DNA from: Thermoplasmata archaeon
GTDB lineage: Archaea; Thermoplasmatota; Thermoplasmata; Thermoplasmatales; Thermoplasmataceae
Length of the DNA stretch: 9,663 nt
Assembly (NCBI GenBank): GCA_021802365.1
Contig: JAKAAJ010000042.1
Location: 1-9,663 of the forward strand
Reading direction: 5' to 3'
Shown here: positions 1-9,663 of the stretch, one piece after another
Layout of the letters: every line of letters begins with the position of its first letter
How positions within the stretch are numbered: position 1 is the stretch's first letter
The notes under the pieces: model-generated
What the model saw: only the letters and a program-made list of their open reading frames with translations
Told to the model about the DNA's origin: nothing
Databases searched by the model: none
Made by a program: the position numbers and the translations under genes

Positions 1-6
1 AGGATA

Positions 7-1200
7 ATGTCCAGACTCCTCACGGATCACCCATTTTACGGAGCAATTGCCTCATCCATGAGGATAGTGGAATCTGAAAAGGCAGACAGATTATACACTG
101 ACGGAAACAGCCTTCTTGTGAACCCGATATGGTTCAGGAATGCCGGCATAGAGGAATGTGCATTTGAGTTTTCAAAAGCAGCTTTGAAGATAGCTCTTCT
201 TCAGCAGTCCCGAATGAAGAACAGAGTTCCACTGGTATGGAACCTTGCAATGGAAAGTGTCTGTGATTCAATTCTGCACAGGTATGCAATTTCAGATGGA
301 ATCACTCTGGACAGTTTCAGCATCCTTGCAGAGCAAATGTCTGTGGACGAGTTCTATACTATGATTGTTAGAACCCTGAGGGGTAGTCAGAGATTGGAAA
401 TGCTGGAAAAAATTGAAAAGAAACTGCTGAATAAAGAGAATCTGTCGGAATCTGATGTTTTTCTTTTGAAGGATATAATGAATATTGCGGAGATCAGAAG
501 GAAGGATATCTCATGGTTCATTGACAGATACGGGGACATGACAAGGAGCCATTATCTTTACAGGCCAAAATATTCAGGGAAAATGGTTGCAGCTGAAAGG
601 GCTGAGGCCATGGCAGGGAGAAGGGGAGTCCCTGTTGAAAGGCACATCAAAGGTTCATATGCATATCCCTCCTGGATATACATTCTATCATCGAAACTGG
701 AAATGAACTGCAGAATTGCCTCATTTTCCAGAATTCGGCGAAAATATCAGGACCAGGGTATTGTTCTTCCGTCTTTCAGGGAAAAATTCTCACTGGTCAA
801 CATTGCCATTGACGCCTCAGCATCAATTGACGATAGCACCTTTTCTTTGTTTTCCTGGTCAGTTATTGAGATGCTTACCGGGAACTTCGGTATACAGGCA
901 TTCAGGATCTTTCAGACTGATGCAGGAATCAGGAGTGAAATCACCATTGAGGGGAGAGATATTCCGCAATCTCTCCTTGTAAGAAAGGGAGAGGGGGGAA
1001 CTGATTTCAGGGATCTATTCCGTCATCTGGAAAATACAGGAAACAGAGAACCGCTTATAGTTCTCACAGATGGAAAGGCCTCTGTTCCGGAAAAGGAACC
1101 TGAAGGGTTCAGAACATACTGGATCACAACAGACCATGACCTCCCATGGGGAGAGAACATTAAATGGGATCTGGAGAGATTGGATGTGCCTTCAGCTTAA
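7..1200 (+). CDS. VWA domain protein of the DUF2201 (metallopeptidase-like) family, protease motif lost
   Basis: Two-part protein of 397 residues. Residues about 5-95 resemble the DUF2201 N-terminal domain (HPF start, 'TDG..L..NP', then 'LVWNLA' at 77-81). The C-terminal half, about 260-397, is a VWA domain preceded by the family's 'ILPSF'-like segment (IVLPSF, 252-257). The MIDAS metal site looks intact: D269-A-S271-A-S273, T332 in GGTDF, and D355 in LTDG. Relatives carry HExxH plus a further His in the first domain. Here the aligned stretch reads K57-A-A-L-K61 with Gln at 66, so zinc binding and proteolysis are unlikely. VWA proteins of this type usually work with a MoxR-family AAA+ ATPase in assembling or remodelling complexes in the cytoplasm. 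The start ATG overlaps a TAA (bases 5-7) in another frame, which could be the stop of such an ATPase gene, but that gene lies outside the window. The family call is fairly sure; the cellular target is unknown. Confidence 0.8.
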   Translation: MSRLLTDHPFYGAIASSMRIVESEKADRLYTDGNSLLVNPIWFRNAGIEECAFEFSKAALKIALLQQSRMKNRVPLVWNLAMESVCDSILHRYAISDGITLDSFSILAEQMSVDEFYTMIVRTLRGSQRLEMLEKIEKKLLNKENLSESDVFLLKDIMNIAEIRRKDISWFIDRYGDMTRSHYLYRPKYSGKMVAAERAEAMAGRRGVPVERHIKGSYAYPSWIYILSSKLEMNCRIASFSRIRRKYQDQGIVLPSFREKFSLVNIAIDASASIDDSTFSLFSWSVIEMLTGNFGIQAFRIFQTDAGIRSEITIEGRDIPQSLLVRKGEGGTDFRDLFRHLENTGNREPLIVLTDGKASVPEKEPEGFRTYWITTDHDLPWGENIKWDLERLDVPSA

Positions 1201-2570: not shown

Positions 2571-4943
2571 TCAGGAGAATTCAAAAAGGCTCTTCTGTTG
2601 AGTATCCGCGTTATCCTTTACTTTCTCCAGTGTGCTGTTCTGGCTGTTGTCCTGCAATTCCCTGTAGTCCTCGGAAAGTCCCTCAAGAACCCTGTTGAGT
2701 GTCTCATCAACTCTTCTGGCATAATATTCCCAGTCAGGGGTACCGTTGAATGGTACACCATCCATGTATGGCTCAACCTCCTGTGGTGACTTTTTGCTGT
2801 TCGTCACTATCCAGGAGACTTTCATGCCGGGGATGAAGGTTTCACCCATTTCCATCAGTTTCTTGGCAACACGGATATTTGCCAGGGATTGTTCCTTGTA
2901 ATTTCTGAAATCTCTAACTGATCGGGAGATAACAAGATCATCAATATTTATGGATGAAGTATCTCCAGCCTTTATCTTTGCAATTATGTCATTCCTGTAC
3001 GCAATGGCCCCTTCCAGGTTTCTGTCCAGCACCAGCTGGAAGACCCTGGAGAGAGCTTCACTCTGAAGATCGAATGAATCTGTCCTTCTGACCTCATATC
3101 CCCTGACAAGAACTTCCCCTTTCTGTGATTCAGGATATATGATCTTCCCTGCGTATCTCTTCTTGGCACCATGTGAGAAGAGCGGATCCATGACCTTTTC
3201 AAATTCCACAATGACCCCCTCCTCCCGGGAGATACGCTCGCTCAGGTCTCGGCCAATCCGGATGGCATCTTCTGGTGATCCCGCACCAGACTCGATAAAT
3301 ACGGAATCAGTATCACCATATATCACACGGAAATTTTCGGATTTCAGTTTTTCTATGAGCCCCTTTATGGTTTCCCTGGCGTATCCGGTAACTGCGCTTC
3401 CAATTTCCAGGTTAGTGAACCTGTAGAACGATGAGGCAAGGACCCCATAGAATGTGTTCATGAGGATCTTAAGAGCCCCCTGGATTCCGTCAAGATATTC
3501 CCGTTCTTCCCCTCCCGATGCTTTCATACGGGCCTTTACGCGGTCTCTTTCCTCCATCAGGTCCCTCAGGAGTCTTGGTACAAGCCCAGGTTTTCTCTCT
3601 GCGGAGATAAATCGTATTCCGTTTGGAGCAACGTTTTCTCCATCCGGTGAAAGGGTTGTGAAACAGATGTTGTATTTCATAATCATGGACGGATACATGC
3701 TCTTGAAGTCAAGAACAATAACATTATCATATATCCCTGCACCGATGGAGTGAACATATCCTCCTTCAATTGGGTTCTCCTTCCCGTTGTGGGAAGTCAT
3801 GGGGACACCGATATTCTCCCTGTCTGCCTTTCTTATGAGAAGAGAATCCACATAATTGCTGGTCCCTCCATTTGAAACATCATCATACGGTAGTTTGGTG
3901 ACAGTGGACATGAACATGTTCCGGTCAACAACCCTGAGCTTCTGGAATATCTGGAGTGTAAGATATGCATCCTTTATACAGTATTCTATCACCTCCTGCT
4001 TTCTGTTTGCCCATTCCTCCTCTATTTTCAGGCGGTTTATGTTATCCTTTCCTTCCCCAAGTAGCTCCTGAGCAACGTAATTCAGTGTTTCATGCTTTGG
4101 ATGCATTATCTTCTTGACCGCCCACCATGTATCCGATATTGTTCTCCCATGCAGCCGCCAGTACTGTCCCTGAATCCTGTGCGGGGGTTCTCCATCCCTG
4201 CCAATGTTGAATCTGACCCCAAATTTCTGCATTCTTGACTGGATTACGGGAAGGTCGTATCCGTCAATGTTATAACCTGTGAGAATGTCAGGGTCCTCCT
4301 TCTTCACCAGAGAGACAAAATCAGAAAGAATTTTTTTCTCATCTCCTTCAATGTATCCTTTGTGCAGTTCCTTCCCGTCGTGAACCGCATATCCGATCAT
4401 AAGGATGTGCCCATATTCCTCCCCTTTCACCGGAGTGACAGCGTTTTCTATATCGAAGCTCAGAATCTTTACAGGAGGAACAAAATCGTCACAATTTTCA
4501 AGTTTTTCCACCTTAATTACAAGTTCAGTGGTAAAATTAGCCTTTTCTTCAGGCATCTCCTCTCCTGTTATTTTAACACAGGGGTTCAGGTCCATATCAT
4601 ATATGAATCTGTGATGAAATGGTATGTCAGCAGCAAGGACCTTGAACCTGTTTCCACATTTCTCCCTTAACTTCGGGACCTTCCAGGGTGAAGTAACATA
4701 TATCCGTGTTACTTTTCTCACCTTTCCCTCCACCCAGAGTTCCATCTCCTTTTCATCACGGTATTCCTCGTCTGCACGATAGATCTGAAGGCATGCATCA
4801 GATGGCTCAACAAGATCGAAATATGGCCTGAATCCAAAATATAGGGCAGTGACTGATCTGCCGTCGTCAGTTCTCCCGAAAAGCTCAACTGCAACATCCC
4901 TTGTCCTGTAAGAGGCAACAAGGATGCGCATCCTGATCTCCAT
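2571..4943 (-). CDS. polB: Family B DNA-directed DNA polymerase with 3'-5' proofreading exonuclease
   Basis: Replicative or repair DNA polymerase of 790 residues, the usual size for archaeal PolB. The exonuclease motifs are complete: ExoI D164-I-E166, ExoII N225...D230 (NIDGYD), and ExoIII Y321-CIK-D325. Next come the linker motif EGGYV (393-397), polymerase motif A D412-FKSMYPS, motif B K492-ILMN-TFYG, motif C YGDTDS with D544 and D546, and KKRYAG (594-599). No intein or break is seen. The extreme C-terminus QKSLFEF (783-789) fits a PCNA-binding PIP box (QxxLxxF), as expected for a polymerase tethered to the sliding clamp. The first Met is chosen because a good TATA box lies about 25 bases upstream, predicting leaderless translation there; Met5, which starts MRILVASY, is the alternative. 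The gene is divergent from the SHMT-like gene and convergent with the dehydrogenase. Confidence 0.97.
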   Translation of the reverse strand: MEIRMRILVASYRTRDVAVELFGRTDDGRSVTALYFGFRPYFDLVEPSDACLQIYRADEEYRDEKEMELWVEGKVRKVTRIYVTSPWKVPKLREKCGNRFKVLAADIPFHHRFIYDMDLNPCVKITGEEMPEEKANFTTELVIKVEKLENCDDFVPPVKILSFDIENAVTPVKGEEYGHILMIGYAVHDGKELHKGYIEGDEKKILSDFVSLVKKEDPDILTGYNIDGYDLPVIQSRMQKFGVRFNIGRDGEPPHRIQGQYWRLHGRTISDTWWAVKKIMHPKHETLNYVAQELLGEGKDNINRLKIEEEWANRKQEVIEYCIKDAYLTLQIFQKLRVVDRNMFMSTVTKLPYDDVSNGGTSNYVDSLLIRKADRENIGVPMTSHNGKENPIEGGYVHSIGAGIYDNVIVLDFKSMYPSMIMKYNICFTTLSPDGENVAPNGIRFISAERKPGLVPRLLRDLMEERDRVKARMKASGGEEREYLDGIQGALKILMNTFYGVLASSFYRFTNLEIGSAVTGYARETIKGLIEKLKSENFRVIYGDTDSVFIESGAGSPEDAIRIGRDLSERISREEGVIVEFEKVMDPLFSHGAKKRYAGKIIYPESQKGEVLVRGYEVRRTDSFDLQSEALSRVFQLVLDRNLEGAIAYRNDIIAKIKAGDTSSINIDDLVISRSVRDFRNYKEQSLANIRVAKKLMEMGETFIPGMKVSWIVTNSKKSPQEVEPYMDGVPFNGTPDWEYYARRVDETLNRVLEGLSEDYRELQDNSQNSTLEKVKDNADTQQKSLFEFS

Positions 4944-5027: not shown

Positions 5028-5077
5028 CCTGATAGTATGATTACCAAGTTCTATGAAATTTATAATAACATATTGTG

Positions 5078-5095
5078 AAGGAGGTGCCCCCTCTT
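5078..5095 (+). promoter_or_regulatory. Possible hairpin masking the ribosome binding site
   Basis: AAG(G)AGG at 5078-5084 can pair with CCTCTT at 5090-5095: six base pairs with one bulged G (5081) and the five-base loop TGCCC. The 3' arm ends exactly before the TTG start codon, and the 5' arm is the core of the Shine-Dalgarno sequence. If it forms in the mRNA it would limit ribosome entry. Short leaders of this design can act as heat- or protein-sensitive switches, but function here is inference. Confidence 0.35.
5079..5086 (+). promoter_or_regulatory. Strong Shine-Dalgarno sequence that sets the TTG start
   Basis: AGGAGGTG matches eight consecutive bases of the complement of the archaeal 16S rRNA 3' end (AUCACCUCCU). 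It lies nine bases before TTG 5096. The upstream in-frame GTG at 5075 comes before it and the GTG at 5084 overlaps it, so neither could use it. This is the clearest ribosome binding site in the window. Confidence 0.75.
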
Positions 5096-6259
5096 TTGTC
5101 TGAAATTCTGGAAATTGTGAGAAAACACAACGACTTCAGAAGGTCGTGCCTCAATATGCAGGTATCAGAGAATTTCCTCAGCGGTGATGCCAAAGAAGCC
5201 CTTTCTTCAGACATGGCTTCCCGATATTCTCTGGAGATTGATGGAAAAGAGGCATATGGTGGAGCAAAATTTTCCGAAGAAGTTTTGCACACAACTGAAA
5301 AACTTGTTGCCCGACTTTACGGGAGCAGGTACGCAGAGGTCAGGCCTATTGGTGGGCACATAGCCTCTGAGATTGTTCTTCTTTCACTGGTATCAAGGAA
5401 GGATAATGTACTATCAATACCTGAGAGCAATGGAGGATACACAGGCTATGAGGGGGGATATCTCCCGCAGATGCTTGGTTTCAAGAATTACCACATACCA
5501 TATGACAACGCAACCCAGGAGATCCGCCTTGACAAGCTGGAAAAACTTATGCAGGTGACATCTCCAACCCTTCTGGTTCTTGGGCAGTCTTTCTTTGTCA
5601 GGCATTACGATCTGAAGGCTATCCGGGAGATCTGCGACAGACATGGAACAAAGTTGGCATATGACGGCTCACATGTGATGGGGTTAATTGCCGGGAAAGC
5701 TTTCCAGAAGGATGTTCTTGACTATTGTGACGTACTTTTCGGGTCAACACATAAATCATTCTTTGGTCCACAGGGAGGGATTATACTTACCAATGATGAA
5801 GACATATATGATACGATGAGCAGGAACATCACCTGGCGTTCAATGGATAATTTCCATCCTTCAAGGGTGGCTGCCCTTGGGGTTGCAACAGAGGAGATGA
5901 TAAGATCCGGTGAGAAGTATGCCTCACTTGTAGCATCCAACAGTCATTCCCTTGGAAAGGAACTAAACGATAACGGAATAGGTGTCAGATTTTCCCCCTG
6001 GTTCTCAGAAACGCACCAGATACTTATTGACCCTCAATCCCTCAGTAAATCAGGTCTGGATTTCAGGACTTTCAGTGAAAGGCTTGAGGAAAATGGCATA
6101 ATTACTGACAGGGAAGGCAGGGTCGGGACAGCTGAAATATCAAGATACGGATTAAATAATATGCATGAGATAGCAGAGTTGATTCTCAAAGTATTCCGGG
6201 GAGAATCTGTAAAAGACAGGGTGAAAGAAATGCTCTCAAACATGTCGCTGAAATACTGA
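5096..6259 (+). CDS. Serine hydroxymethyltransferase family PLP enzyme, divergent active site
   Basis: PLP-dependent fold-type I enzyme of the GlyA/SHMT family, 387 residues from the TTG start. PLP-site residues are kept: Schiff-base Lys K220 after His H219 in GSTHKSFFGPQGG, ring-binding D190 and H193 in YDGSH, and S165. E25 in VSEN, Y44 in SRY and Y54 in AYGG are also present. The C-terminus, R342-V-G-T-AEIS-R350-YG, has the archaeal spacing and should hold the substrate carboxylate. Aligned by eye with E. coli SHMT, however, catalytic Glu57 is Leu46, Tyr64 is Ala53, and PLP-stacking His126 is Asn112. True SHMT makes glycine and a one-carbon-loaded pterin from serine; this protein may instead be an aldolase-like paralogue with another amino acid substrate. 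TTG is chosen over GTG 5075 because of the strong ribosome binding site between them. It is coupled to the CBS gene one base downstream. Family is sure; SHMT activity (glyA) is not. Confidence 0.85.
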   Translation: MSEILEIVRKHNDFRRSCLNMQVSENFLSGDAKEALSSDMASRYSLEIDGKEAYGGAKFSEEVLHTTEKLVARLYGSRYAEVRPIGGHIASEIVLLSLVSRKDNVLSIPESNGGYTGYEGGYLPQMLGFKNYHIPYDNATQEIRLDKLEKLMQVTSPTLLVLGQSFFVRHYDLKAIREICDRHGTKLAYDGSHVMGLIAGKAFQKDVLDYCDVLFGSTHKSFFGPQGGIILTNDEDIYDTMSRNITWRSMDNFHPSRVAALGVATEEMIRSGEKYASLVASNSHSLGKELNDNGIGVRFSPWFSETHQILIDPQSLSKSGLDFRTFSERLEENGIITDREGRVGTAEISRYGLNNMHEIAELILKVFRGESVKDRVKEMLSNMSLKY

Positions 6260-6260
6260 G

Positions 6261-7370
6261 ATGGTTTTCATGAAGGTATCAGACATAATGACAAGGGAAG
6301 GTTTGGTGACCCTTCCCTCAACGGCAAAGATCACCGATGCGTTTGCAAAGATGAAGGAAACTGGCATACATCAGATACCGGTCCTGTCAGGAAAGACATA
6401 CATTGGAATGCTTCTGTTCAGGGAAATCCTTAAGAGACGAAGCCTTCAGAGCATGGAAAAAATAGGCTCACTTGCAATAAGAACACCCAGGCTGAAGCCC
6501 TCAGATGATATCTTCAGGGCCATTGATCTCATTAGGAAGTCAGGAATTCCAGCACTTCCGGTTGCAGAGAAAGGGAAGCTGGTTGGAATACTTTCCAGGA
6601 CGGATATTATGCGCAATCTTGGGACTTTCAGTGACATCAGGAACATGAAGGTGCTTGATGTCATGACAACCAGTCCAGAAACAGTAAGCATGGATGACAG
6701 CGTAAAGACTGCAGTGGAGAAGATGAGAAGCCTTGATGAGAGTGAAATCCCGGTAACAGACGGGGAACAGTTCCTGAAGGGAATCCTAATGGCAGGGGAA
6801 ATATCTCCGTCCGCAATAATCCGGGGTGACCAGACGAAGGGGAAAGGAGACATAACTGGAGAAAACTCCAGAATGGACCTGAAGTGTTCATCCTTGATGG
6901 GAAACCCTGTCAGTGTGCACCCTGACTCAACGCTGGAAGATGCCTCCCGAGCGCTACTGAAAAACAGGTTTCACACTCTGCCGGTCACAGATGGGCAGGG
7001 AAAGGTTGTCGGGGTAATTGGCATCATGGATATTCTGAACATGATCTCAGTACCAGCCAGGGAAAAGGGAATCCTGATCCAGGTTTCCGGTCTGGATGCC
7101 TATGACGACGATCTCTACGACATTATATTTTTTGAGGGGGAAAAATTTGTTTCCAGAATATCTAGAATTGCCGGAATTGAGCAAGGCAGTTTCAATATTC
7201 ACGTAACAAAATATCACTCCTCAGGCAGGATTAAATATTCCCTGAGGACCCGCCTCTATGGGGGTCATACTCACATGGCCGTAGATGATTTTGACTGGAA
7301 TTTCGGAAAATGCCTCAGCCGCATTTTCGATACCTATGAGAACAGACTGAAGAAAAATAATTCTTCCTGA
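6261..7370 (+). CDS. Four CBS domains fused to an HPF/RaiA-like ribosome-binding domain
   Basis: Cytoplasmic protein of 369 residues. Four CBS motifs form two Bateman pairs: CBS1 about 4-60 (SDIMTREG... IHQIPV...GML), CBS2 64-120 (IPALPV...VGILSRTDIM), CBS3 128-186 (VLDVMTTSPETV... EIPVTD), and CBS4 207-262 (SLMGNPVSV... HTLPVTD...VGVIGIMDIL). Such pairs typically bind AMP, ADP, ATP or S-adenosylmethionine. CBS3 is the least typical after its central strand, and a charged 190-206 linker joins it to CBS4. Residues about 270-365 look like the beta-alpha-beta-beta-beta-alpha fold of hibernation-promoting factor: ILIQVSGLD, a helix, FNIHVTKYHSSG, IKYSLRTRLYG, HTHMAVDDFD, then the helix DWNFGKCLSRIFDTYENRLKK. 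The likely role is nucleotide-sensitive control of ribosomes. ATG 6261 lies one base after the upstream stop; ATG 6270 (MKVSDIM) is also plausible. Translation is probably coupled to the SHMT-like gene. CBS calls are firm; the HPF call rests on pattern and secondary structure. Confidence 0.85.
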   Translation: MVFMKVSDIMTREGLVTLPSTAKITDAFAKMKETGIHQIPVLSGKTYIGMLLFREILKRRSLQSMEKIGSLAIRTPRLKPSDDIFRAIDLIRKSGIPALPVAEKGKLVGILSRTDIMRNLGTFSDIRNMKVLDVMTTSPETVSMDDSVKTAVEKMRSLDESEIPVTDGEQFLKGILMAGEISPSAIIRGDQTKGKGDITGENSRMDLKCSSLMGNPVSVHPDSTLEDASRALLKNRFHTLPVTDGQGKVVGVIGIMDILNMISVPAREKGILIQVSGLDAYDDDLYDIIFFEGEKFVSRISRIAGIEQGSFNIHVTKYHSSGRIKYSLRTRLYGGHTHMAVDDFDWNFGKCLSRIFDTYENRLKKNNSS

Positions 7371-7554: not shown

Positions 7555-9243
7555 ATGGAATCTGTAGGTAATGTTGACACTAAAAGGAGGCCAAGGAAGA
7601 TTGGATTAAAGAAGGAACTTGGTTTTTATGAACTCCTTGTTATTGGCGTTGCCGGAGCCCTGGGTAACGGTGCTCTCTTTGGTACAGTTCAGATGGTTTC
7701 AGGTGCTGGCCCGGGAGCTATTTTCGGGTTTGTATTCGGAGCATTTATCTATGGTCTGTTGACAATGACATACGTGGAAATGTCAAAGGTATATCCGGAG
7801 GCAGGAGGCCCAACAAGATATACAATCTATACCCATGGACGCTGGACAAATCTTATAAACTCCATGGCAGACCTGTTATGGTACCTTTTCATCCCGCCCA
7901 TCGAGGTTGTGGCAATTATTTCAGGTCTGGATTACTTCTATCATGGGGTATTCCTTACAAGTGCTGGATTTCCCACAACCACAGGGGTTCTCGTTGGAAC
8001 GCTTCTTATACTGACATTTGTCCCGATCAATTATTTCGGAATAAAGGAGTTCGGCAGAACAACAAATGTGATGGGAATTATAAAACTGATATTCTACATT
8101 GCCATGGTGCTTGGTTTTATTGCCTTTGTTGCTAATTTCAGTAACCTGACAGCATATGGGGTTCTCCCTTACAGAGCGGTGTCCATTCTTGGAATCATGC
8201 CTCTTGTCATGTACGATTTCGGGGCCACACGAGTAATTCCGGATCTTGCAGAGGAGACAAAACACCGGGGTGACATAGGCAAGGCCATGATCTTCACGGT
8301 GATTATAGAGAGCCTTATCTATGTGGGTGTAGGGTTTGCAGTTGTGTTCGGTTTCCATTTTGCCTCACTGGGCATAAAGCCAGGTGATTTCAGTGCTCTA
8401 TCATCACATCTTGAGGGATTTAACCCATTCTTCGTTTTTGCGCACCAGTCCGGAATAACCTGGGTTTTTGTTGCCGCTCTTGTAACAGGGCTTCTGGCCC
8501 CATACGTGACGGGATACATATATCTTGGAAGCGGAACCAGAGTTCTCTTTGCCATAGGAAGATCAGGTTTCATAAGCAAATCACTTAAAAAGATAGAATC
8601 GAAGCACGCTATCCCGCTGATTGCCCTGATTGTGTTTGCAATTATAGGTTCAATAATAGTTCTGGTGACTGCTCCTGATCCTACCATATATACTTTCATA
8701 GATGACGCGTCGGCCGCAGGATATCTGGGGCTTGTTCTCAACCCTATTGCGAACATGGTTACAAGAAGACAGGGTCTTGTTCCTAAGAATCTGAGAGTAA
8801 GAGGTATGCCAGTAATAGCCCCACTTGCTGTGGGTCTGAGTGCTCTTATACCCTTCTGGGCGGGATGGCCTTCCGAGCCTTATGCTGTTCTTCTTATGTT
8901 AATAGGTACAGTTGTCATAGGAATACTGTCAAAGGTCAAAATAGGCGCCAGGAATGTGATATGGTATGTGGTTTTCATTCTGTTCGAGACAATAATGGTG
9001 ATGATAGGTTCGGACGGTTTCACCGGAAAAATATTCGGAGCAAGTATTGGGAACCTTATACCATTTACATGGGCCACTCTGATAGTTCTGGTTGTTTCAA
9101 TGGCAATATTCTACCCCTGGGGCATTCTGTCAGGTTTCAAGAAACAGTTCTCACACCCGGACTTCACACAGGAGGTTCTGGAGTCCAACAGACTCGCCAA
9201 GCAGATTGACCCGTTGAAATCAGAAACAGAATCTAACCAGTAA
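7555..9243 (+). CDS. APC-superfamily amino acid permease
   Basis: Integral membrane transporter of 562 residues with about 12-14 hydrophobic segments (approximately 25-47, 54-76, 101-125, 143-163, 172-194, 207-225, 243-267, 300-322, 353-372, 385-402, 419-437, 440-458, 467-484, 499-522). TM1 holds the Gly-rich substrate motif GVAGALGNGALFG (31-43). The family's TM6-loop signature appears as DLAEETKHRGDIGKAM (230-245), and the post-TM8 signature as GTRVLFAIGRSGFISKSLKK (327-346), followed by the usual 'P' of HAIP. The N-terminus is short, charged and cytoplasmic; the C-terminal tail from about 525 is hydrophilic. Such proteins import amino acids using an ion gradient, which suits a peptide- and amino-acid-consuming acidophile. 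Substrate cannot be told from sequence. It is a single-gene unit with its own promoter and a terminator at its stop codon. Confidence 0.92.
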   Translation: MESVGNVDTKRRPRKIGLKKELGFYELLVIGVAGALGNGALFGTVQMVSGAGPGAIFGFVFGAFIYGLLTMTYVEMSKVYPEAGGPTRYTIYTHGRWTNLINSMADLLWYLFIPPIEVVAIISGLDYFYHGVFLTSAGFPTTTGVLVGTLLILTFVPINYFGIKEFGRTTNVMGIIKLIFYIAMVLGFIAFVANFSNLTAYGVLPYRAVSILGIMPLVMYDFGATRVIPDLAEETKHRGDIGKAMIFTVIIESLIYVGVGFAVVFGFHFASLGIKPGDFSALSSHLEGFNPFFVFAHQSGITWVFVAALVTGLLAPYVTGYIYLGSGTRVLFAIGRSGFISKSLKKIESKHAIPLIALIVFAIIGSIIVLVTAPDPTIYTFIDDASAAGYLGLVLNPIANMVTRRQGLVPKNLRVRGMPVIAPLAVGLSALIPFWAGWPSEPYAVLLMLIGTVVIGILSKVKIGARNVIWYVVFILFETIMVMIGSDGFTGKIFGASIGNLIPFTWATLIVLVVSMAIFYPWGILSGFKKQFSHPDFTQEVLESNRLAKQIDPLKSETESNQ

Positions 9244-9330: not shown

Positions 9331-9663
9331 TTATTTCATAGCCTTCCTGATAGTAAGATTCACATCCAGAATCTCAAGCCCTTTAGAAATTCCATTTTTA
9401 AGGTCATCAGTCTTGAGACCTTTAAGTATTTCCCTTATTCTCTTTTCGTAATCAAGGCCAAGATATGGGACAGTTTCCTCTATAACTCTTGCAGGGGTTC
9501 TTGACCCTACAAATGTCTCACGTAGCTGCATTATAATGCGCTCGAAGTTGTCAAGAACAAGCCCCCGGCCATCAGGGGAATGTGAGCAGGAAATGTAGAA
9601 TCTGGTCGAATCCTGTTTCTTTATGCGGCCATCCATGATCATCTCAAGTGTTTTCTTCAGATT
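9331..9663 (-). CDS. Unrecognised protein, C-terminal part only (gene runs off the window)
   Basis: The frame is open from the window edge to a TAA at 9331-9333, giving 110 residues that begin NLKKTLEMIMDGRIKKQ. The internal ATG at 9642 would make a 103-residue protein, but the frame continues upstream without a stop, so a longer protein is more likely. The visible part has a charged helix, a short strand (TRFYISCS), the turn SPDGRG, and then mainly helical charged sequence ending EILDVNLTIRKAMK. There are no membrane segments or metal-binding motifs. The opening pattern could be the end of a winged-helix DNA-binding domain followed by a ligand or dimer domain, but I cannot support a family. 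It converges on the permease gene with an 87-base gap. Confidence 0.6.
   Translation of the reverse strand, partial: NLKKTLEMIMDGRIKKQDSTRFYISCSHSPDGRGLVLDNFERIIMQLRETFVGSRTPARVIEETVPYLGLDYEKRIREILKGLKTDDLKNGISKGLEILDVNLTIRKAMK

What the first reader, a model, noticed from the sequence alone, without database searches (positions are those of the whole stretch)
6261..7370. Quadruple CBS protein fused to an HPF/RaiA-like domain: a candidate energy-sensing ribosome hibernation factor
Seen: four CBS motifs and then about 95 residues with a beta-alpha-beta-beta-beta-alpha pattern and the DWNF...L..IFDTYENRLKK final helix, resembling E. coli HPF (...DMYAAIDGLIDKLARQLTK). Known: CBS pairs sense adenine nucleotides; HPF/RaiA block the decoding channel. 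From memory, an archaeal ribosome dimerisation factor has been reported in Pyrococcus furiosus; I cannot verify that it is related. Inference: AMP/ATP ratio or SAM level gates binding of the C-terminal domain to the 30S subunit, shutting translation under starvation.
Basis: partly seen in the sequence, partly recalled or inferred. Interest (0 to 1): 0.7.

Follow-up and report, generated by a model that had tools for sequence, protein, structure and literature searches.

The report
Archaeal ribosome hibernation factor HibA

Summary
[quoted passage not shown] A model of that region alone, though poor, ranks HPF/RaiA/protein Y structures first in Foldseek (rows 1-11, none with E <= 0.001). A profile of 36 relatives matches PDB 9sr9_H along nearly its whole length (E 4e-41). 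That chain is Pyrococcus abyssi HibA (PMC13324472, April 2026): four CBS domains fused to an HPF/RaiA domain, seen by cryo-EM in the 30S mRNA channel with the CBS disk on the 50S. This protein is a Thermoplasmatales HibA, a new member of a known kind. The proposed AMP/ATP gate is untested here and unsupported in P. abyssi, where neither nucleotide clearly changed ribosome binding. Details that may be new: the complete nucleotide motif sits in CBS2 (35 of 36 relatives), not CBS3/CBS4 as in Pyrococcus; hibA directly follows a divergent SHMT paralog in 22 of 23 HibA-bearing genomes of the family; two of those genomes carry a second HibA with a longer loop.

The parts
6261..7370 (+). hibA: 4xCBS + HPF/RaiA-like domain, 369 aa (alternative start 6270)
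6276..6437 (+). CBS1 (motif GMLLFRE, no S/T-x-x-D)
   Evidence: (C36 coordinates minus 1215)
6489..6620 (+). CBS2
6585..6605 (+). CBS2 GILSRTD (residues 109-115): the only complete nucleotide-site motif in this protein; S/T and D both kept in 35 of 36 aligned sequences
6657..6800 (+). CBS3 (motif degenerate, GILMAGE)
6828..6881 (+). loop equivalent to the PTC loop of P. abyssi HibA (residues 190-207 in both); residues 184-204 are low-confidence in the model; carries GDITGE aligned with Pyrococcus GELAGE
6903..7046 (+). CBS4 (GVIGIMD: D kept, S/T lost)
7062..7367 (+). [quoted passage not shown]
5096..6259 (+). divergent SHMT-like PLP enzyme gene, stop codon 1 nt before the hibA ATG (TGAgATG); listed from GTG 5075, but alignments to relatives outside the genus and a GGAGGTG at 5080-5086 (read by eye) favour TTG 5096
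5059..5066 (+). TATA-like box (TTTATAAT) upstream of the SHMT-like/hibA pair; read by eye, not tested

Best explanation
The gene encodes a HibA ribosome hibernation factor of a Thermoplasmatales archaeon. Inferred from its published homologue: in stationary phase or stress the C-terminal HPF/RaiA domain lodges in the mRNA/tRNA channel of the 30S subunit, while the disk of four CBS domains fills empty tRNA sites on the 50S, its long CBS3-CBS4 loop reaching the peptidyl-transferase centre. Idle 70S ribosomes are thereby blocked, held together and protected until growth resumes. Shown here: ORF, domain order, predicted fold, family membership, conservation. Inferred: ribosome binding and physiological role. 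Predicted only: an adenylate bound at CBS1/CBS2, effect unknown.
For: A profile of 36 relatives matches 9sr9_H (P. abyssi HibA) over profile positions 2-363, E 4.2e-41, and another CBS protein solved in four PDB entries (9l96_a, 406 aa) over 1-365, E 6.4e-33; the Methanosarcina ribosome-bound CBS proteins (9znf, 9zni, 9zng) and Dri (9e6q) align only over the CBS part (their titles are). Relatives aligned with this protein over 98-99% carry Pfam Ribosomal_S30AE at the C-terminus (P0057, 29.9 bits against a cut-off of 23.7; 9 of 36 at E <= 0.1; precomputed in 32 of the 120 proteins listed). Model topology; the isolated C-terminal model ranks HPF/RaiA/protein Y structures first (rows 1-11). PTC loop at the same residue numbers with a shared G[DE]xxGE core. 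HibA found in 23 of 25 genomes of the family (one only as fragments, one with a broken frame) and in 16 of 16 others of the order. Function of HibA: PMC13324472.
Against: No direct evidence of ribosome binding for any Thermoplasmatales protein was seen. The window protein has no S30AE match and neither has its genome; the same Pfam search is also silent in the control Haloferax volcanii, although that species is reported to have a CBS protein with a hibernation-factor domain (HVO_2384), so the Pfam model misses such domains. The isolated-domain model is poor (pLDDT 64.7, first strand missing) and its best Foldseek E is 7.7e-3. The 50 rows shown for each whole-model fold search are CBS structures. 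The second HPF insertion is 2 residues shorter than in P. abyssi and the C-terminal tail about 17-20 residues shorter.
Confidence: 0.9

Rival explanations
1. Energy-gated switch: AMP, ATP or SAM bound to the CBS module turns ribosome binding on or off.
For: A complete adenylate motif in CBS2, S/T-x-x-D in 35 of 36 aligned sequences; R113 in 34 of 36. P. abyssi HibA binds AMP with Kd 12 uM.
Against: In P. abyssi neither AMP nor ATP clearly changed binding or the distribution of states, apart from one extra weakly populated state with ATP. The site in this protein appears to lie elsewhere, so that test does not fully transfer.
Confidence: 0.2
2. The protein also, or mainly, serves DNA replication and recombination.
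For: P. abyssi HibA (Pab0961) co-purified with RadB, with GINS23 (moderate score) and with the nuclease GAN (in the nuclease-free assay only); T. kodakarensis TK1186 with GINS23; Haloferax HVO_2384 reported as a personal communication to interact with RadA and RadB (passages of PMC3820547). In the window a family B DNA polymerase gene lies divergently upstream of the SHMT-like/hibA pair; the same, within 1.5 kb between profile matches, in 9 of 23 HibA-bearing genomes of the family (compared by eye).
Against: An HPF-type domain and the cryo-EM of P. abyssi ribosomes explain the C-terminus better; the polymerase is not seen there in 14 of 23 genomes, some of them fragmented drafts.
Confidence: 0.1
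3. The protein is a CBS regulatory subunit of the SHMT-like enzyme encoded just upstream, and its C-terminus does not bind ribosomes.
For: Linkage in 22 of 23 HibA-bearing genomes of the family, with a hibA start -13 to +6 nt from the SHMT-like stop in 17 of 21 linked loci examined.
Against: Linkage absent in 16 of 16 other genomes of the order; the C-terminus is on average better conserved than the CBS part and is HPF-like.
Confidence: 0.05
4. A 30S-dimerising factor like aRDF.
Against: In the passages seen, aRDF's authors compare its N-terminal fold with LmrR, eS10 and CodY, report it as sequence-wise exclusive to the Pyrococcus group, and the word CBS occurs 0 times in the main text (PMC11724365). 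I did not compare the two sequences directly.
Confidence: 0.01

Closest known systems
HibA of Pyrococcus abyssi (Pab0961; PDB 9sr9 chain H; PMC13324472)
   Same: Four CBS domains then HPF/RaiA-like domain in one chain; near full-length profile alignment; PTC loop at residues 190-207 with G[DE]xxGE core
   Different: 369 versus 392 aa; hairpin insertion between the 2nd and 3rd strands of the HPF domain 2 residues shorter; shorter C-terminal tail; complete S/T-x-x-D motif in CBS2 here, in CBS3 and CBS4 there (printed alignment)
PDB 9l96_a (406 aa CBS protein in four entries; probably haloarchaeal, my inference from its acidic sequence) and Haloferax HVO_2384 (passages of PMC12607858)
   Same: 9l96_a aligns over the whole profile; HVO_2384 is described as tandem CBS plus a hibernation-factor domain
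   Different: 9l96_a keeps the motif in CBS2, CBS3 and CBS4 and has a longer loop before CBS4. My paper searches (none used the code 9l96) brought up no paper on it
Bacterial HPF/RaiA/protein Y
   Same: Fold of the C-terminal domain; Foldseek rows 1-11
   Different: No CBS module in the classical proteins; 7-17% identity in those rows
Dri (Pyrobaculum, 9e6q) and Methanosarcina SriA-SriD (9znf, 9zng, 9zni)
   Same: CBS modules bound to ribosomes (PDB titles)
   Different: Matches here cover the CBS part only

Membership tests
HibA | N-terminal module of four CBS domains | tested here: met
[quoted passage not shown]
   topology; S30AE on relatives; Foldseek ranking on a weak isolated model
HibA | Homology to P. 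abyssi HibA over both parts | tested here: met
   E 4.2e-41 over profile positions 2-363; single-sequence search E 2.7e-18 over 2-323
HibA | Long PTC loop between CBS3 and CBS4 | tested here: met
   residues 190-207 align with Pa 190-207; low confidence in the model (184-204 pLDDT < 50)
HibA | Two archaeal insertions in the HPF domain | tested here: inconclusive
   first region within one residue of the length in Pa; second 2 residues shorter; no structure-based test
HibA | Adenylate site between CBS3 and CBS4 | tested here: inconclusive
   the S/T-x-x-D motif is absent in CBS3 and lacks S/T in CBS4, but complete in CBS2; sequence only
HibA | CBS module groups with HibA rather than CM-1 to CM-6 in a tree | not tested
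   no tree with CM families was built
HibA | Binds the ribosome; inhibits translation; preserves 70S | not testable with these tools
   needs cells or purified ribosomes
Pfam PF02482 (Ribosomal_S30AE) | Profile match over the curated cut-off | tested here: not met
   no match in the window protein or in the window's genome; relatives do match
aRDF | Sequence or fold similarity to PF0560 | not tested
   judged only from passages of PMC11724365

The most novel reading that the evidence does not exclude
In the window's family HibA has diversified. Its adenylate sensor has moved from the CBS3/CBS4 pair to CBS1/CBS2; its gene is translationally coupled to a divergent SHMT paralog that lacks a 15-residue loop of the canonical enzyme, tying hibernation to amino-acid metabolism; and some genomes keep a second HibA with an enlarged loop aimed at the peptidyl-transferase centre, i.e. 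two specialised hibernation factors in one cell.
Probability: 0.3. Interest if true: 0.5.

Novelty: new member of a known kind. Interest (0 to 1): 0.3.

Why it matters
It places an acid-loving archaeal lineage (lifestyle recalled) in the HibA hibernation pathway and gives testable differences from the HibA studied in depth in Pyrococcus. The conserved CBS2 motif offers another protein in which to ask whether nucleotides regulate HibA, a point left open in P. abyssi. The duplicated long-loop copy and the conserved partner gene are new handles on when and how these cells put ribosomes to sleep.

Tried and rejected
Pfam S30AE on the window protein and on its whole genome (81.6% complete): no match, so homology was carried through relatives. 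Whole-model fold searches: the 50 rows shown for each are CBS structures, because that module fills the list; 9sr9 and 9l96 were not among them, perhaps because the library ends 2026-04-08. Searching the C-terminal piece alone in the protein database gave 1 protein among 2 candidates, which starts inside the CBS part and so is probably a fragment; no stand-alone close relative was found. The isolated-domain model was poor; I quote its matches only as a ranking, and the identity of chains taken from ribosome entries is inferred from title and length. SHMT as housekeeping glyA: rejected, because the genome has a higher-scoring SHMT elsewhere and the linked gene is 31% identical to it. aRDF: rejected from passages. 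Rfam (gathering threshold) and tRNA scans of the window: nothing. A genome-contig scan with the single protein gave one true relative, Thermoplasmatales archaeon UBA447, and one short match in a Bacteroidetes contig.

Full report
Check of the observation. ORF 6261-7370 (+) is 369 aa; the opposite strand of this stretch is broken by stops. Pfam finds four CBS stretches. The AlphaFold2 model from 36 sequences has mean pLDDT 84.6 and, after the CBS module, one strand, a long helix, three strands and a last helix.

What it is. The best solved match by sequence is PDB 9sr9_H (392 aa). The code 9sr9 occurs once in PMC13324472, Nat Commun, April 2026, which names the family HibA: four CBS domains fused to an HPF/RaiA-like domain (residues 270-392 of a P. 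abyssi protein), found on stressed P. abyssi ribosomes by cryo-EM and reported in 47% of archaeal genomes across all major lineages. That chain H is HibA follows from its length, numbering and architecture. I saw its abstract, sections 6, 7, 11, 12, 28, part 1 of 2 of section 13, and passages. A profile of 36 relatives matches 9sr9_H over positions 2-363 at E 4.2e-41 and 9l96_a over 1-365 at E 6.4e-33, while ribosome-bound CBS proteins without an HPF domain (Dri; Methanosarcina SriA-D) match in the CBS part only (titles).

Where it comes from. The window lies in an unnamed draft genome (1.25 Mb, 81.6% complete). The nearest named relative is Thermoplasmatales archaeon UBA447, 93% identical in this protein. 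A member of the same family, G019, appears to be Picrophilus oshimae, because its contig length of 648,970 equals that given for P0115. The family name Thermoplasmataceae is my inference.

The HPF link. The window protein has no Pfam S30AE match of its own, but relatives that align with it nearly end to end do: P0057, 32% identical over 99%, scores 29.9 bits against a cut-off of 23.7; of the five such relatives scanned one by one (P0055-P0059) only P0057 is over the cut-off; 9 of 36 aligned members reach E <= 0.1; 32 of the 120 proteins listed carry the precomputed label. The Pfam model is a blunt tool here: it rings in 11 of 14 control genomes but not in Haloferax volcanii, which is reported to have a CBS protein with a hibernation-factor domain (passages of PMC12607858). 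An isolated model of the last 103 residues is weak (pLDDT 64.7) and no Foldseek match has E <= 0.001, yet rows 1-11 are all HPF, RaiA or protein Y structures, or ribosome entries with such factors, from bacteria and chloroplasts, best E 7.7e-3. Over 36 sequences the C-terminal part has mean pairwise identity 48%, the CBS part 39%; K325, S327 and R329 are invariant in both alignments, W346 in the first only.

Mechanism. Shown for P. abyssi and T. [quoted passage not shown] Inferred for this protein by homology. The loop has the same residue numbers here and its core GDITGE matches Pyrococcus GELAGE; the strict pattern G[DE]xxGE occurs in 16 of 34 divergent sequences and is lost in many close relatives, so it is a tendency, not a rule. 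[quoted passage not shown]

Nucleotide site. P. abyssi HibA binds AMP, ADP and ATP (Kd 12, 65 and 113 uM); AMP and ATP were seen between CBS3 and CBS4, without clear effect on ribosome binding. In the printed alignment Pyrococcus has T-x-x-D in CBS3 and CBS4 and no D in CBS2. Here the complete motif is in CBS2 (GILSRTD). Of the 36 sequences of A1, S/T and D are both present in CBS2 in 35, in CBS4 in 9, in CBS3 in 0 and in CBS1 in 4; of the 34 of A3 (overlapping, more divergent) the counts are 34, 20, 0 and 4. I predict that adenylates bind at CBS1/CBS2. The reading of the motif is recalled knowledge of CBS domains; binding is untested.

Distribution. The single protein finds some match in 40 of 41 genomes of the order, but 2 of those 40 need a remark: G005 has only short CBS matches and G020 only two HibA fragments. 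Near full-length HibA is present in 22 of 25 genomes of the family (one of them, G007, with stops in frame); the other three are G020, G005 and G004, which has none; all three are 76-79% complete. It is present in 16 of 16 other genomes of the order. Over 194 genomes of the phylum, 135 match a HibA profile at E <= 1e-20, but these include matches to the CBS module alone, so 135 is not a count of HibA.

Gene partner. A SHMT-like gene ends one base before the hibA ATG. Using the coordinates, the script finds the pair on one strand within 600 bases in 22 of 23 HibA-bearing genomes of the family (G020 and G007 counted; exception G018) and in 0 of 16 other genomes of the order. In 17 of 21 linked loci examined a candidate start lies -13 to +6 nt from the SHMT-like stop; in 3 the script found no start codon, and in 1 (the broken G007 gene) the gap is 85-94 nt. 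The genome has a higher-scoring SHMT elsewhere (216.6 against 122.2 bits). The linked gene is 31% identical to it, keeps the THK motif and lacks 15 residues before the GTxEI motif; the six sequences of this paralog type that I aligned (window and four others linked to hibA, and the unlinked one of G028, 42% identical to the window's) all lack them. The gene from G018 (30% identical, unlinked) has most of them and may be another paralog. That this loop touches the pterin in SHMT is recalled, not tested. The HibA paper's main text holds none of the terms serine hydroxymethyl, operon or glyA; I did not search the literature further for the pair.

Paralogs. G008 and G016 each have two near full-length HibAs: one linked to the SHMT-like gene and one with a longer, glycine-rich loop and no SHMT-like frame in the stretch examined. 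In a 40-row tree the 7 long-loop rows, which I chose by eye, form one side of a branch with 100/100 support.

Other factors in the same genome. aSBDS is present. A 287-aa protein with four CBS domains and no sign of an HPF domain lies on C28; the paper says most such families rarely co-occur with HibA.

Verdict.

Noticed in passing
window 5075-6259 (+): Divergent SHMT paralog directly upstream of hibA in 22 of 23 HibA-bearing genomes of the family, lacking 15 residues of the canonical SHMT of the same genome.
   Followed up: partly
L011 1501-2634 (G008) and L047 1513-2709 (G016): Second HibA copies with an extended glycine-rich PTC loop, grouping with P0035, P0037, P0038, P0039 and P0045.
   Followed up: partly
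window 2571-4943 (-): Family B DNA polymerase divergent from the SHMT-like/hibA pair; same arrangement in 9 of 23 HibA-bearing genomes of the family. HibA homologues have been reported with replication proteins.
   Followed up: partly
P0079 (255 aa): HPF domain at the N-terminus (S30AE 39.8 bits, residues 7-93) followed by two CBS domains: the reverse domain order; organism not determined.
   Followed up: no
L048 252-1112 (own genome, C28): 287-aa frame with four CBS domains, in the same genome as HibA.
   Followed up: no
G193:C3:108992-110035 and 110318-111364, G193:C4:16795-17859: Three matches to nearly the whole HibA profile in one genome of the class, two of them in tandem; not read.
   Followed up: no
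window 9331-9663 (-): C-terminal end of an aminopeptidase-like protein (weak ERAP1_C match, below cut-off) cut by the window end; an amino-acid permease (7555-9243) lies between it and hibA.
   Followed up: no
window 1-1200 (+): VWA-like/metallopeptidase-like protein (DUF2201 and DUF2201_N), followed by an unassigned 159-aa ORF at 1164-1643.
   Followed up: no
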